Position numbers and translations under genes: made by a program. The notes below the pieces were generated by a model that saw nothing but the letters and a program-made list of their open reading frames with translations, had not been told where the DNA came from and ran no database searches. Source: Antrodiella citrinella (lineage: Eukaryota; Basidiomycota; Agaricomycetes; Polyporales; Steccherinaceae). Taken from it: a stretch of DNA of 64,000 nucleotides. Shown piece by piece: positions 6,376-12,345 of the stretch (position 1 is the stretch's first letter; every line of letters starts with the position of its first letter). The DNA lies in the NCBI GenBank assembly GCA_004802725.1, contig SGPM01000112.1, positions 1 through 64,000 of the forward strand, read 5' to 3'.

Positions 6376-9300
6376 ATGGCTCCTCTTGTGTTGCACGACT
6401 CGCCGACCCCCACAGACGAAGCATGGGTGTTCACCATTCCTTCGTCTCATTTGGTCTCAAGATCAGGAAATGGGAAGCACATCTCATTTACCGCCCAGCG
6501 GATTCAATTTCAGATGATCCGATTTCCAAACAATCGTATACTCCAGGAGGACGACCTCTCGGAGTTCGTTTTAGTCTCGTTTGAGCAACTGCGTTTCCCG
6601 GATACATTTCCCTCTGTTGCGAGGGACTATATGATGCGACTATTTCAAAATGGTTTGGTCTTGAACGGTGTACAGTATCGATTCTACGGTCACAGTAATT
6701 CGCAGTTGGTGAGTGGTAGTCACGCTTCGATGCCTATAATTTTCTGAACGAACATCATAGCGATCTAGGAGCTGTTTCATGCGGCGAGCAAATACCGATC
6801 AAGAACTTGATCGTCGAGTATACGCACTTGGAGATTTCGAGAAGATAAAGAATGCCGCTAAGCGTAAAAATAATTGCTCTGCGACTCTCCGTTGCCTGAC
6901 TCTTTGATTTCAGGAGCAAAACGCATCGGTTTGCTCTTTTCGGAGGCGAAGATGGACTTTGTGCTCGATCCGGACCGCACCCGTGATATCGGTGATATAG
7001 AACATGGTGGCGAGAACTTCTCGGACGGATGCGGCTTGATCTCGAAGAAGTTCGCGATGATACTCAGTCGCCACAAGAGGATCTTGTTTAGAGGAAAGCC
7101 ATACACACCCTGCGTGTATCAGATCAGGTCAGAGATGATGTCACACCTCTCGACACCGACTCACCTACATTGTACAGATATCGTGGCTACAAGGTATACA
7201 AATATGATGTCACCTAGCCTGGCGTAACTCATGAAATCTCAGGGTGTCCTGATGCTCCATCCTGAGCTCGGCGAAAACAACATCCATGTACATTTTAGGA
7301 AGAGTCAGAAGAAGTTTACTGCAACCAAGAACAACACCTTCTCGGTTGTCAACTACTCCGCACCGTACGCTTTCGCGAGGTTGAACAATGATATTGTGGC
7401 CCTTTTATCCAGTCTAGGCGTGACCACGGAGAAACTTCTGGCGAAGCAAAAGGCCTATCACGAGTGGATTCTGAAGGCATCGGACGATTGGGAAGTTGCA
7501 TTCGACCTACTTTCAGGCTTAGGTCGCTTTCAGCTCGCCGAACGTTTGCTGCTTGAAGGTCTCGACTCTACAGACATCCAGAAAGAGATCAAGAGCTTGC
7601 GGAATAGCGAAGTTGCTGGGTTCAAGAAGAACGAACGAACACGGGTTAGGATGCTTCTCTCGAAGTCACGCTTCCTTTTCGGCATATGCGATCCCTACGG
7701 CGTCTTGCAAGAAGGCGAGGTTCATGTGAGGGTGACTGCTCCTCGTAAAGGAGCTAGCACCCTGACGAATGTTGACGTCTTGATTGTGCGCAACCCTTGC
7801 CTACATCCTGGTGACTGCTTGAAACTTCGAGCCGTGGCTCATCCGAAGCTGGCTCATCTGGTCGATTGTGTCGTGTTCGCCACTCGTGGCCGCCGTGCCG
7901 CGCCGTCCATGAGCTCGGGAGGGGACTTAGGTGTGATTTCTATTACCTTCTCCGTACCGACTCTGACATTTTTTTTTCAGATGGTGATCAATTCACAGTG
8001 ATATGGGATCCTGACATGGTACCCCCTAAAGTTGCTGAGGTGTGTCGTCGATGACAAACTTACTTCTGCCTTGAACTGAGTCGAAGCATGATGTAGTCAT
8101 ACACGTATCCGCCGGGGAGGGAACACATAAATAACAGCATTACACGCGAGGACCTAGCGCGCCACTTTGCATCTTACAATAGGTATGGAACTCGAACTCC
8201 TTGTTCTTATCTTCATTTTCTGAATATATCGTAGCATATCATTGGGAAGAATTACGGCGCTACATTCACGTTGGATGCGCTACAGTCCAAAAGGCGCCAT
8301 GTCAGATGAATGTCAAGAGCTCAATGCCCTGCACTCGTCGGTTGTTGATGGCGCATCTATCAAGATTCCTGAGCGATTGACCAACGTTCCTACCACGAAG
8401 GCCGCAGACACCGATTCCCCGGAGAAATTCGTTCTGGATGCACTTCACGAAGATACTAACGCATTCCAGGCAGCGTTTCTGCAGCACCACACCGAACGCA
8501 TACGGACGGACGAGACCACACAAGACGTAGCGGAAAGTATGATTCTCAATTTTCTTTCCTCTGACAAGATGGCCTTCTCCGAATACGAGACCATCGGGAA
8601 AGCCGCCACATTGGCACGACAGTTCGGGATAGATCTCAGGAGATATGTGGCGCACATGGACTTCTCAGCTCTATCGACAGCGGAAAAATACGCAGTTGGG
8701 ACCATACTGAACGTGACACCAGAGGAGGCTCCGTACATTTGGAACAGGTAGGATCTCATTATCATGTTTCTTGAACAAGTATTTACTCAAAATCTTATCA
8801 AGCTTGATTCGTTCAAACATTCTGCAAGCCAGAGATCTTGAAGACCGCGATCTTGGCGGACCAATGCATTTGCAACGCTTGTATACTTCGACTATCCAAG
8901 GCCGCCCTGCGTTTTTCGAGTATCTAAAGGAGGCCGTAGAAAATTTCCACCGTCGTCTGATCATATTGCAGGTCAGTCAGTTTGAAGGGCGTTGTTGTTG
9001 TCGTTCCGTATTGATCGTTGTCCTAGACTGACGAAAGGTTCTCCGTTGGCATATTCATGAGGGGAGCTTTGGCTTGGAATGACGAAGTACGTGGCGTTGT
9101 TCTATATTGATGATCATCAGCAATGAGACGTTGTCACTACAGCCAGATATTGACGACAACGTCATGGTTTGTTCTTTCATGCCACAATCATCCACGTCCT
9201 TGACCACATACAAGCGGGGTACGAAAGGCTTCAAACTGCATTGCAGCGACAATTCTTTGCAACTATACAACCGACAGAGGTCAGATACCTTTATCTTCAT

Positions 9301-12300
9301 GACGAGGCCTCCAGAACGGTCTGGTCAGGATATCATTACCAGCATAGCTCTTCAAAAGATCTCCGATCACGTCCGTCGAGTGAGTGAACATTAATTAGGA
9401 TGTGTGCGCGATCTGCGGTGCTGATTTCGATCCGTAGCAATGTGGTCGACTCCAGCGTGCACCTGTGATCACTATAGAGATCCACGTAGTATCCAATCGG
9501 GACCGCGTTGGTCACCAAGCATTCGACCTCCGGTTTGACCAGTGAGTTTGAAGTAATCAGGGATGCTATACTTTGTGAACAATTGCTCTTCGTTCTAGCG
9601 TTCAGACCGAAGAGTACCTTCGTCGGTTCGATCACCGCCCTGAACCATATACTCCCCGCTCTCTTGTCAACTTCAATTGGGAAGAAGTTCCAGACCAACA
9701 GCAGATTGTGTTTGCTGGCACTCAACTTCAGGCCAATCTAGTCATCTCCGATGCATCAGAGGACACGCTCGTTCAGTACTTCCAATTCGCCATGCAATAT
9801 CGCTGCGAAGACCGCGCATTCTGGATGTTTGATGCTCTTATCGCCAAGGAGGAGCTGCCTGAAACCTCTGTAGTCTATTGCATGGACAAACACCCGCCAT
9901 TAGTCTACTCACTCCTCAGACGGTTCATGCTGGGCGAAGCTGGCTCCGAGCGTCTTCCAGATTCGTTCCGAACCATGGTTCCTTCCATCTTGAGCAACGT
10001 CATCCGCTGTGCCAACGAGCTCGGGATTGCCGCTCTTGTCGCCTTGGAGAAGCTCTCGTCCCATATCGCAGAACTCGACTTCCCTCAATACGTTGACCTT
10101 TTGTGGCTGAGCGCAATGTCCGTACGTCCGAAAGACCTCGTCCAGGAGATCCTCATGGTCCTACACGATTGTCGGATTGACGTCAGGGCTCGTAATGCAA
10201 TACAGGCCTACGGTCATAAACACGCTTTGGCTGTGGCGTTTGATAGAGCTGAAGAGGCCAGCGAGGCGTGTCCTTGTGACGATAACGGAAGGCCAAGGCG
10301 TCAGCGCACCGCGCCCGTGCGCGCAAAGCTCGTCGTTCCCAAGCCACCGAAGCGGCCGGAATCTCAGGGAGAGCCCGACAACGATGAGATCAACGGCGAA
10401 GAGGAAGGATCTGCCGTCATGGCTCATATTCGTGTCGATGCAGTCACATCTATCCGCATCCACTCCCACGTTCGATTACAAGTCTCGTCGAAGCCAGAGC
10501 ATTCTACGCTCCCTGCGGCGATTATCGATGCCGTCGTCCTACGAGCATCCCGAGGCGAGATTCTTTTGTCACCGTTTCATCCATTGCCTCCGGAGTATAC
10601 TGAAGTGACTTGGAACATGTACGATGCGGGAAGTGTGGCCACTTCTCGTGCTATGCTCGATGCCGTTCAGAAATTGGTTATGGCGGGTTATGGAGCTTGT
10701 AAATTCCACCGGGTGATCACAGGTTCTGGAGATGACGAGCATCTGGAAGGACAATCAGAGGGCGGCGAAGCTGAGACCGACGGGGACGAAGAAGATGACT
10801 TGGGAACGCTCAATGATAGTCAGAAGATTGCGGTTAGAGCCTCTCAACTTGGCAAGTTTTCGTTGATATGGGGCCCTCCTGGTGCGTCCTTTCGTCCTAG
10901 ATACTGAAATATCACTGAAGTCTGGTCATGTGAAGGCACGGGAAAAACAACGGTGGTAGTGAAGATTCTCCTTCGCTTCTTACGCCAAAACGCAGACCCA
11001 GACGCACGCATCTTGATGACTGCATCGACCCACAATGGTAGGTCCAAGTTTCCAATCAGCTCTGATATTTGAGTCAACGTGCGATGATGACGTTGCACAC
11101 ACAGCTGTCGACAATGTTCTGGAACGTTTTGTTGCAGAAATTGCCAGAACAGACCCGCCATTGTTGAATGAGGAACAGATACTCCGCGCCGCCACGGACG
11201 GTACCCGAGTGAACAAGGCGTTGCAAAAGTACACGATTGATGCTCGCCTTGGAGGCAGTATTAGCGACAATCCGCGGTTGGTCCAGAAGGCAGAGAAACG
11301 AGTGAAGCAAGCTCGTATTGTTTTCACCACTTGCACGGGAGCCGGATTGGGGATTATACGCAAGTTGGAGTTTGAGACGGTCCTCATTGATGAGGCATCT
11401 CAGATCACTGAACCGGGGGCTCTCATTCCGTTAGTGAAGGGCTGTCGGACGGCCGTCTTAGTGGGAGACGAGTAAGTACAAAGTTATAGCCAACATTCAT
11501 TTGCTTAACTTCTGTTCAAACAGTGTCCAATTGCGGCCTATTGTCAAACCTCTAGGCAAAGTGCTGGAGTACGACAAGTCATTATTTGAGAGAATACGGC
11601 ATGCTCATCCCGAAATGACGAAGATGCTAGAGGCAAGTCCATCACGTTCAATATGCAACCCTCCCTCCTCGTCTGATAACCCTTTCCACAGGTTCAGTAT
11701 CGCTTCTCAAGTGATATCGAACACTTTCCCTCGCACGAATTCTACGAAGGAAGGCTCCAGACGGGCAACCCGCGCGATACAGAGATAGGACAACTGCTCG
11801 CTCCCGGTTCTTTCCCATGGCCTCGCACAGACCAAAATAGAATCACACCCGTCGTCTTCGTCGACTGTCGCTCCGAAGAAGACTTCGGGCGATCGTCCAA
11901 GAGCAACGAAGGCCAGGTCGCGCTCACTAAACATATCTTGACGCTTCTCCGGACACCATCAGATCAAGAGGCACCCGACGATCGAGGTAGCATCCTTACA
12001 CGCCTCCGGGCGATCACCGTGTCCCTCCTCACGCCGTACTCGCGCCAAGTTAAAATGATGACGGAGGAGATTGGCACGAACGAGCATACTGTCGTTAGCA
12101 CGATAGACGGGTTCCAAGGACGCGAGAGCGACGTGGTGATCTTCTCTACGGTGAGATGCAACATGGAGGGTGATATCGGGTTCGTAGAGGATCTGAGGCG
12201 GCTGAATGTGGCGTGGACGAGGCCAAAGGTGGGGTTGATCATTATCGGAGACCGTAGGACCCTGTCCACCAACGCCTTGTGGGTCCGGGCTTTGGATGCG

Positions 12301-12345
12301 TGCACGGAGGTTGTCATCACTCTCCCGGAACCTCATTCCGCATAA
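6376..12345 (+). CDS. RNA-dependent RNA polymerase fused to a UPF1/NFX1-type SF1 helicase
   Basis: Seventeen exons (6376-6708, 6761-6863, 6914-7127, 7178-7193, 7243-7930, 7981-8039, 8097-8182, 8235-8747, 8803-8971, 9027-9086, 9143-9379, 9438-9541, 9599-10881, 10936-11037, 11105-11471, 11524-11632, 11692-12345) stay in phase and give 1,698 residues. Residues 1 to about 860 are a eukaryotic RdRP: the catalytic DLDGD is at 450-454 (codon 452 split by an intron), followed by TYPPGREHIN and the C-terminal HVVSNRDRV. Residues about 1,100-1,698 are an SF1 helicase: Walker A GPPGTGKT at 1286-1293, DEAS at 1418-1421, QYRFSSDIEHFPSHEFYEGR, STIDGFQGRESDVVIFS and LNVAWTRPK. The junction lies inside one 1,283-bp exon (9599-10881) with no stop, so the fusion is not an exon-joining artefact. 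Intron 16 begins with GC (GAG|GCAAGT). Expected role: second-strand synthesis in RNA silencing with built-in unwinding; function is inferred. Confidence 0.92.

What the first reader, a model, noticed from the sequence alone, without database searches (positions are those of the whole stretch)
6376..12345. RdRP and SF1 helicase encoded as one protein
One in-phase model joins a complete RdRP core (DLDGD at 450-454) to a complete UPF1/NFX1-type helicase (GPPGTGKT at 1286-1293, DEAS at 1418-1421). The two halves meet inside one 1,283-bp exon with no stop. In fission yeast the RdRP Rdp1 and the SF1 helicase Hrr1 are separate subunits of one complex, and in nematodes the NFX1-type ZNFX-1 works with RdRPs, so this is a natural 'Rosetta stone' fusion that could make dsRNA without recruiting a helicase. 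I do not know how widespread the fusion is.
Basis: partly seen in the sequence, partly recalled or inferred. Interest (0 to 1): 0.88.

Follow-up and report, generated by a model that had tools for sequence, protein, structure and literature searches.

The report
Fungal RNA-copying polymerase with built-in helicase
This mushroom-forming fungus appears to make one protein that both copies RNA and carries an RNA-unwinding motor; the same fused protein turns up in many other fungi and was described once before in Fusarium, so it is not unique, but the gene sitting next to it hints at an unstudied partner enzyme.

Summary
Pfam finds a cellular RdRP (PF05183), then AAA_11/AAA_12. The host is most likely Antrodiella citrinella; its public annotation of this gene is already fused (P0001).

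The fusion is not rare. Of 325 sequences held, 135 carry both halves nearly complete, always RdRP first, with both active sites conserved; they come from Agaricomycetes and Pezizomycotina. Fusarium FgRdRP5 was published with this architecture in 2024 (PMC11237814, passages).

The 'Rdp1-Hrr1 Rosetta stone' reading is not supported: the helicase is most like UPF1 (301 bits; ZNFX1 167). A tree test did not exclude NFX1-type kinship, and Hrr1 itself was not available.

New lead: the head-to-head neighbour (5314-6110, -) is the only AAA_28 match found in the assembly, and P0314, a protein of unnamed origin, carries an AAA_28 domain in front of RdRP and helicase. No transcript data exist here.

The parts
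6376..12345 (+). RdRP-helicase gene, CDS of 17 exons, 1,698 aa
   Evidence: spliced model; homologues
6553..8376 (+). cellular RdRP core, residues 60-547 (with introns)
   Evidence: PF05183 E 2.9e-109; coordinates computed
7924..7988 (+). DLDGD catalytic motif (residues 450-454), split by intron 5 (7931-7980)
   Evidence: D450 127 of 129, D452 130 of 130, D454 130 of 131 letters
9599..10881 (+). exon 13: RdRP C-terminal end, middle region without a Pfam match, and the start of the helicase
   Evidence: residues 862-1288 alone have no Pfam match at E 0.1
10800..12312 (+). UPF1-like SF1 helicase core, residues 1262-1688 (with introns)
   Evidence: coordinates computed
10882..10935 (+). intron 13, inside Walker A (GPPG|TGKT); 54 bp; if retained it gives an in-frame stop
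   Evidence: 14 public models stop or change reading here
11633..11691 (+). intron 16, GC-AG
   Evidence: donor GCAAGT, acceptor CCACAG
5314..6110 (-). head-to-head neighbour: AAA_28 P-loop NTPase, about 232 aa, 3 exons (the tiny first exon is conjecture); 265 bp between the two start codons
   Evidence: PF13521 E 2.8e-19; only PF13521 match found in the assembly

Best explanation
A single polypeptide of a fungal RdRP-helicase family: an N-terminal cellular RNA-dependent RNA polymerase and a C-terminal UPF1-like SF1 motor, inherited as one unit in Agaricomycetes and Pezizomycotina and acting in RNA silencing. Shown here: the gene structure, the order of domains and the conservation of both active sites. 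Inferred: the motor uses ATP to move along the transcript, strips proteins and structure, and brings the 3' end of aberrant RNA to the tethered polymerase, which copies it into dsRNA for Dicer. UPF1 motors move 5' to 3' (recalled), that is towards the 3' end at which a polymerase begins, so scan-then-copy fits better than a motor running ahead of the polymerase.
For: Model and motifs. 135 of 135 near-full-length homologues have the RdRP before the helicase; K1292 in 129 of 132, D1418 in 130 of 130, R1658 in 135 of 135 letters. The 29 fused helicases put in a tree (13 Agaricomycete rows, 16 Pezizomycotina rows, of 80 and 54 available) form one clade, 99/100, apart from this genome's UPF1, SEN1, DNA2 and others. 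UPF1/NAM7 is the nearest solved helicase. FgRdRP5 of Fusarium graminearum has RdRP, DEXDc at 1277-1478 and AAA at 1475-1677; with Fgrdrp1 and Fgrdrp2 it contributes to exonic siRNA, and its deletion cuts ascospore discharge to 47.6% (PMC11237814, passages). The assembly has Argonaute and RNase III matches.
Against: No RNA or protein data for this gene. The FgRdRP5 sequence was not retrieved; other Fusarium members were (P0275, P0278, P0287). The authors of that paper also suggest roles in rRNA processing or NMD, so the helicase may serve another process. 30 of 127 public models that cover the RdRP core end before residue 1600; 14 models break off or change at intron 13, which could be annotation error or a real helicase-less form. 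The RdRP clade was tested only against five other RdRPs of this genome, and its Ascomycete part has weak support (57/98). Direction and function of the motor are not tested.
Confidence: 0.7

Rival explanations
1. It is the fused counterpart of the fission-yeast Rdp1-Hrr1 complex, with an NFX1/Hrr1-type helicase.
For: AU test does not reject fused helicases plus the genome's NFX1-type protein as one clade, p 0.237. Hrr1, SAD-3 and RnhA work in RNAi (PMC5384783, passages), so the pairing works alike.
Against: Profile and single-sequence rankings put ZNFX1 well below UPF1. No Hrr1/SAD-3/RnhA name among the 120 listed of 3,001 hits to the helicase half, of 7,994 scored candidates. A separate ZNFX1-type gene exists. 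No NF-X1 zinc finger in the model (7 families at E 0.001).
Confidence: 0.12
2. Two neighbouring genes joined by the gene model; in the cell the RdRP and the helicase are separate.
For: 14 public models of other species stop or change at intron 13, just after GPPG, and some annotated proteins are helicase only (P0122-P0125).
Against: The halves meet inside one 1,283-bp exon; it is conserved through the joint in other species; no conserved start for a separate helicase upstream of Met1213; P0084 encodes both halves on a contig too short for introns.
Confidence: 0.05
3. The gene makes two products by regulated retention of intron 13: the full protein, and a 1,296-aa polymerase that stops after half of the Walker A motif.
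For: Retention gives ...GPPGASFRPRY and a stop. 14 public models, several genera, break at this intron, of 30 truncated among 127.
Against: Other truncated models end at introns 14-16 or elsewhere; models cut earlier score lower and fall off the capped list, so the count is biased; predictors may split the gene here.
Confidence: 0.13

Closest known systems
FgRdRP5 (FGSG_09076) of Fusarium graminearum, PMC11237814 (passages)
   Same: RdRP then DEXDc (1277-1478) then AAA PF13087 (1475-1677); nearly the same positions as here; own branch in the RdRP tree of that paper
   Different: Ascomycete; the paper treats the helicase part as a DEAD-like domain and reports no wider family
RDR2-type RdRP of plants (PDB 7w84, 7roz)
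   Same: nearest solved polymerase, 3.1e-98
   Different: no helicase; longer N-terminal part before the core
UPF1/NAM7 helicase (PDB 8rd3, 2xzo)
   Same: nearest solved helicase, 8.5e-89; the match begins upstream of the motor at profile position 1167
   Different: no UPF1 zinc-binding domain in the model; fused to an RdRP; the genome has its own UPF1 (L023)
Hrr1 / SAD-3 / RnhA helicases
   Same: SF1 helicases that act with RdRPs in RNAi (PMC5384783, passages)
   Different: separate proteins; RnhA is described there with an NF-X1 zinc finger; not compared directly
Dictyostelium RrpA/B/C (PMC3661229, passages)
   Same: each has a helicase and an RdRP domain in one protein
   Different: helicase before the RdRP, as its deletion constructs imply; Dicer-type SF2 by recall, no sequence compared here

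Membership tests
Cellular (eukaryotic) RdRP | PF05183 with DxDGD catalytic loop | tested here: met
Cellular (eukaryotic) RdRP | RNA polymerase activity | not testable with these tools
   no experiment
SF1 UPF1-like helicase | motifs I, II, III, V and VI of SF1B | tested here: met
   my print of motif IV in that call fell on another place (residue 100), so IV was not counted; QYR is seen and among the conserved columns
SF1 UPF1-like helicase | closest to UPF1 among solved SF1 helicases | tested here: met
UPF1 proper | N-terminal zinc-binding CH domain | tested here: not met
   not among the 7 Pfam families at E 0.001
NFX1-type / Hrr1 helicases | NF-X1 zinc fingers | tested here: not met
   note that not every member need have them (recalled)
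NFX1-type / Hrr1 helicases | one clade with NFX1-type helicases | tested here: inconclusive
   AU p 0.237; Hrr1 not available
FgRdRP5-type RdRP-helicase | RdRP followed by SF1 helicase in one protein, similar length and positions | tested here: met
FgRdRP5-type RdRP-helicase | one clade with Fusarium members | tested here: met
   P0278 (F. gaditjirri) in the helicase clade 99/100 and on the fused side in the RdRP tree; FgRdRP5 itself not tested
FgRdRP5-type RdRP-helicase | role in siRNA production | not testable with these tools
   needs mutants

The most novel reading that the evidence does not exclude
The RdRP-helicase works with a third, unstudied enzyme: the AAA_28 NadR-kinase-like NTPase. 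Here it is the head-to-head neighbour, 265 bp between start codons, and the only PF13521 match found in the 30-Mb assembly; in P0314 the same kind of domain stands in front of RdRP and helicase in one protein. If so, the true 'Rosetta stone' of this locus is kinase plus RdRP plus helicase, perhaps an RNA-end or nucleotide kinase that prepares the template or the product, in a module older than the split of fungi from P0314's lineage.
Probability: 0.3. Interest if true: 0.68.

Novelty: new member of a known kind. Interest (0 to 1): 0.42.

Why it matters
A tethered motor and polymerase lets one ask directly whether dsRNA synthesis in RNAi needs a helicase on the same molecule, in a protein kept across two large fungal groups. 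Naming the motor UPF1-like rather than Hrr1-like changes the question from heterochromatin RNAi to the sensing of aberrant mRNA. The AAA_28 lead, if it holds in other genomes, would add a new component to fungal RNAi.

Tried and rejected
First splice model had wrong junctions from exon 11 on (19 stops); mended. Paper searches that returned nothing: (0 papers each). Searches on RdRP-helicase fusion in basidiomycetes listed no title on it; I opened only some of the papers. One search listed 10 of 82 papers and one, none on the A. fumigatus fusion by title. Passages of PMC4890784, PMC6572790, PMC6396948, PMC10080066 and PMC4778953 mention no RdRP fused to an SF1 helicase in the places shown; the whole texts were not read. 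A link of AAA_28 with RdRP: 4 papers by listing, none opened. I had taken Cryptococcus Znf3 for an NFX1-type helicase by recall; the passages do not say so, and I dropped it.

Independent origin of the P0314 fusion: its helicase lies nearer to IGHMBP2-like helicases (94/90), but one clade with the fungal ones is not rejected (p 0.256), and its RdRP falls on the fused side (long branch); left open. P0314 in viral contigs: no match. Rfam and tRNA scans of the window: nothing. A 95-aa piece of L026 found no solved relative.

Rows dropped: P0191 left out of the helicase trees (odd double region); very long own rows left out; L035 and L036 left out of the RdRP tree for too few residues. The 'Agaricomycete' and 'Ascomycete' groups (80 and 54) go by the search that found the protein, not by checked taxonomy, and hold some unnamed metagenome proteins.

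The other seven RdRP loci of this genome: no helicase-HMM match in the fetched loci, but these reach only about 2.0-2.8 kb past the RdRP match and could miss a distant helicase; the whole-assembly search with the helicase core hit none of their contigs.
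Full report
What is there. The CDS 6376-12345 (+) has 17 exons and 16 short introns and reads 1,698 codons without a stop. Pfam gives RdRP at 60-547, AAA_11, and AAA_12 at 1461-1669. The joint lies in exon 13 (9599-10881). Intron 16 is GC-AG; its donor follows the protein homology (MTKMLE|VQYRF). The nearest protein in the database, 98% identical, is A. citrinella EUX98_g4493 (P0001), an annotation of most likely this very gene, also fused. The species lies in Polyporales.

One protein or two. The joint is conserved protein: identity to the model in exon 13 runs at 26-56% per 50 residues among 80 Agaricomycete-type homologues and 13-46% among 54 Ascomycete-type ones (stretches 851-1300). 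No methionine upstream of residue 1213 is widely conserved (the best, Met956, in 27 of 80 and 0 of 54). P0084 holds both halves on a contig that leaves about 253 bases over. Against this, 30 of 127 public models that cover the RdRP core stop before residue 1600. In a recount, 14 models stop, or retain sequence and change, right after GPPG, at the intron that splits Walker A. Selection of the best-scoring hits favours models cut late, so the excess is a lead and no more.

How widespread. The first search lists 120 of 273 hits: full fusions with named species that belong, by recalled taxonomy, to Polyporales, Boletales, Agaricales, Russulales, Hymenochaetales, Cantharellales, Auriculariales and Sebacinales. 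The search from an Ascomycete member lists 108 hits: fusions in Aspergillus (A. fumigatus P0239 stands for 91 sequences), Cladophialophora, Glarea, Zymoseptoria, Trichoderma, Fusarium, Colletotrichum, Xylaria, Ascobolus, lichen fungi and others. Of 325 sequences held (one of them the window's own exon 13), 215 match the RdRP profile, 314 the helicase profile, 204 both, and 135 both nearly in full; in 135 of 135 the RdRP comes first. The 135 include P0001 and P0314. Catalytic letters: D450 127 of 129, D452 130 of 130, D454 130 of 131, K1292 129 of 132, D1418 130 of 130, E1419 131 of 132, R1658 135 of 135. I could not test absence in any group.

Which helicase. By single sequence the best solved relatives are UPF1 (162 bits), SEN1 (126), SMUBP-2 (116), DNA2 (104) and ZNFX1 (79); by profile UPF1/NAM7 301, SEN1 245, SMUBP-2 241, DNA2 201, ZNFX1 167. 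Beyond fungal fused proteins and fungal or metagenomic pieces (several of which begin inside the RdRP half: P0134, P0148, P0156, P0180), the next hits include IGHMBP2-family helicases at about 30-37% identity (120 of 3,001 listed). In the tree the 29 fused helicases form one clade (99/100); this genome's UPF1, SEN1, DNA2, an IGHMBP2-like (L024) and an NFX1-type helicase lie outside. L026 was typed as NFX1-type by its match to ZNFX1 (2e-59). Several own rows have very long branches, and the AU test fused plus L026 gives p 0.237: the tree neither shows nor excludes NFX1 kinship. Similarity favours UPF1.

Other RdRPs of the genome. PF05183 matches fall into eight places on seven contigs. The helicase core hits none of the other RdRP contigs. 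Argonaute matches lie on four contigs and RNase III matches on four, two of them with two domains each, so RNAi machinery is present.

Prior knowledge. FgRdRP5 of F. graminearum has the same order of domains at nearly the same positions, forms its own branch in the RdRP tree of that paper, and contributes with two others to exonic siRNA and ascospore discharge (PMC11237814, passages). The architecture is therefore in print. I found no paper in my listings that describes the family as a whole or its presence in mushrooms, but most listed papers were not opened. Dictyostelium RdRPs also carry a helicase domain (PMC3661229, passages).

The neighbour. On the minus strand at 5314-6110 lies a gene for an AAA_28 P-loop NTPase (PF13521, 2.8e-19); its start codon is 265 bp from that of the RdRP gene (the three-codon first exon is conjecture). 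NCBIfam's NadR model matches at 2.7e-9 but far under its cut-off (36.7 of 341 bits); among solved chains NadR matches weakly (0.0033), behind engineered RecA chains matched over 34 residues only. A six-frame search finds PF13521 in one place only in the assembly, this one (29 of 31 candidates scored; domains cut up by introns could be missed). P0314 (2,015 aa, source 'ena', no organism given) has PF13521 at 4-174, RdRP at 242-735 and the helicase at about 1515-1904. Its first 250 residues align to the neighbour at 32% over 196 aa, E 5e-14 in a two-sequence comparison; among 325 sequences it is the only match (5.4e-11); searched in reverse against the assembly, it finds only this place, weakly (E 0.0255). 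With one such gene among an assumed 10,000, an immediate neighbour would have it by chance about 2 times in 10,000; the comparison was made after the fact, and rests on one genome and one protein. Even if P0314 is itself a merged gene model, it would show the same adjacency in another lineage.

How it may work. From the parts: the polymerase makes the complementary strand from the 3' end; a UPF1-type motor moves 5' to 3' on single-stranded RNA (recalled). On one polypeptide the motor could scan a transcript, remove proteins, reach an unprotected 3' end and hand it to the polymerase. This is inference. It predicts that Walker A and DLDGD point mutants lose the same siRNAs, and that ATP helps copying of structured or protein-bound templates.

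Verdict. Observation confirmed; fusion old, conserved and already described in Fusarium; Hrr1 equivalence not supported; AAA_28 partner is the open and more novel question.

Noticed in passing
window 5314-6110 (-): AAA_28 P-loop NTPase gene head-to-head with the RdRP-helicase gene; only PF13521 match found in the assembly; the same kind of domain is fused in front of RdRP and helicase in P0314.
   Followed up: partly
window 10882-10935: Intron inside the Walker A motif; 14 public models of other fungi stop or change right there. Either a prediction hot spot or a conserved helicase-less form.
   Followed up: partly
P0314 (protein): AAA_28 + RdRP + SF1 helicase in one 2,015-aa protein of unnamed origin; its helicase is nearer to IGHMBP2-like ones, shared or separate origin undecided.
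   Followed up: partly
window 20869-22548 (-), 46012-47709 (+), 61014-62882 (-): BTB/POZ domain in 3 of 5 long ORFs tested; several other ORFs between 15 and 64 kb look alike by eye, as in a local gene family.
   Followed up: partly
window 12464-12973 (-): Downstream neighbour carries part of a bestrophin-like protein (PF25539, 2.3e-13).
   Followed up: no
L026 (G000:C399:75000-82000): Separate ZNFX1-type helicase gene in the same genome.
   Followed up: partly
P0132: Fused protein filed under the glomeromycete Acaulospora but 48% identical in the helicase to the Agaricomycete one; possibly a contaminant.
   Followed up: no
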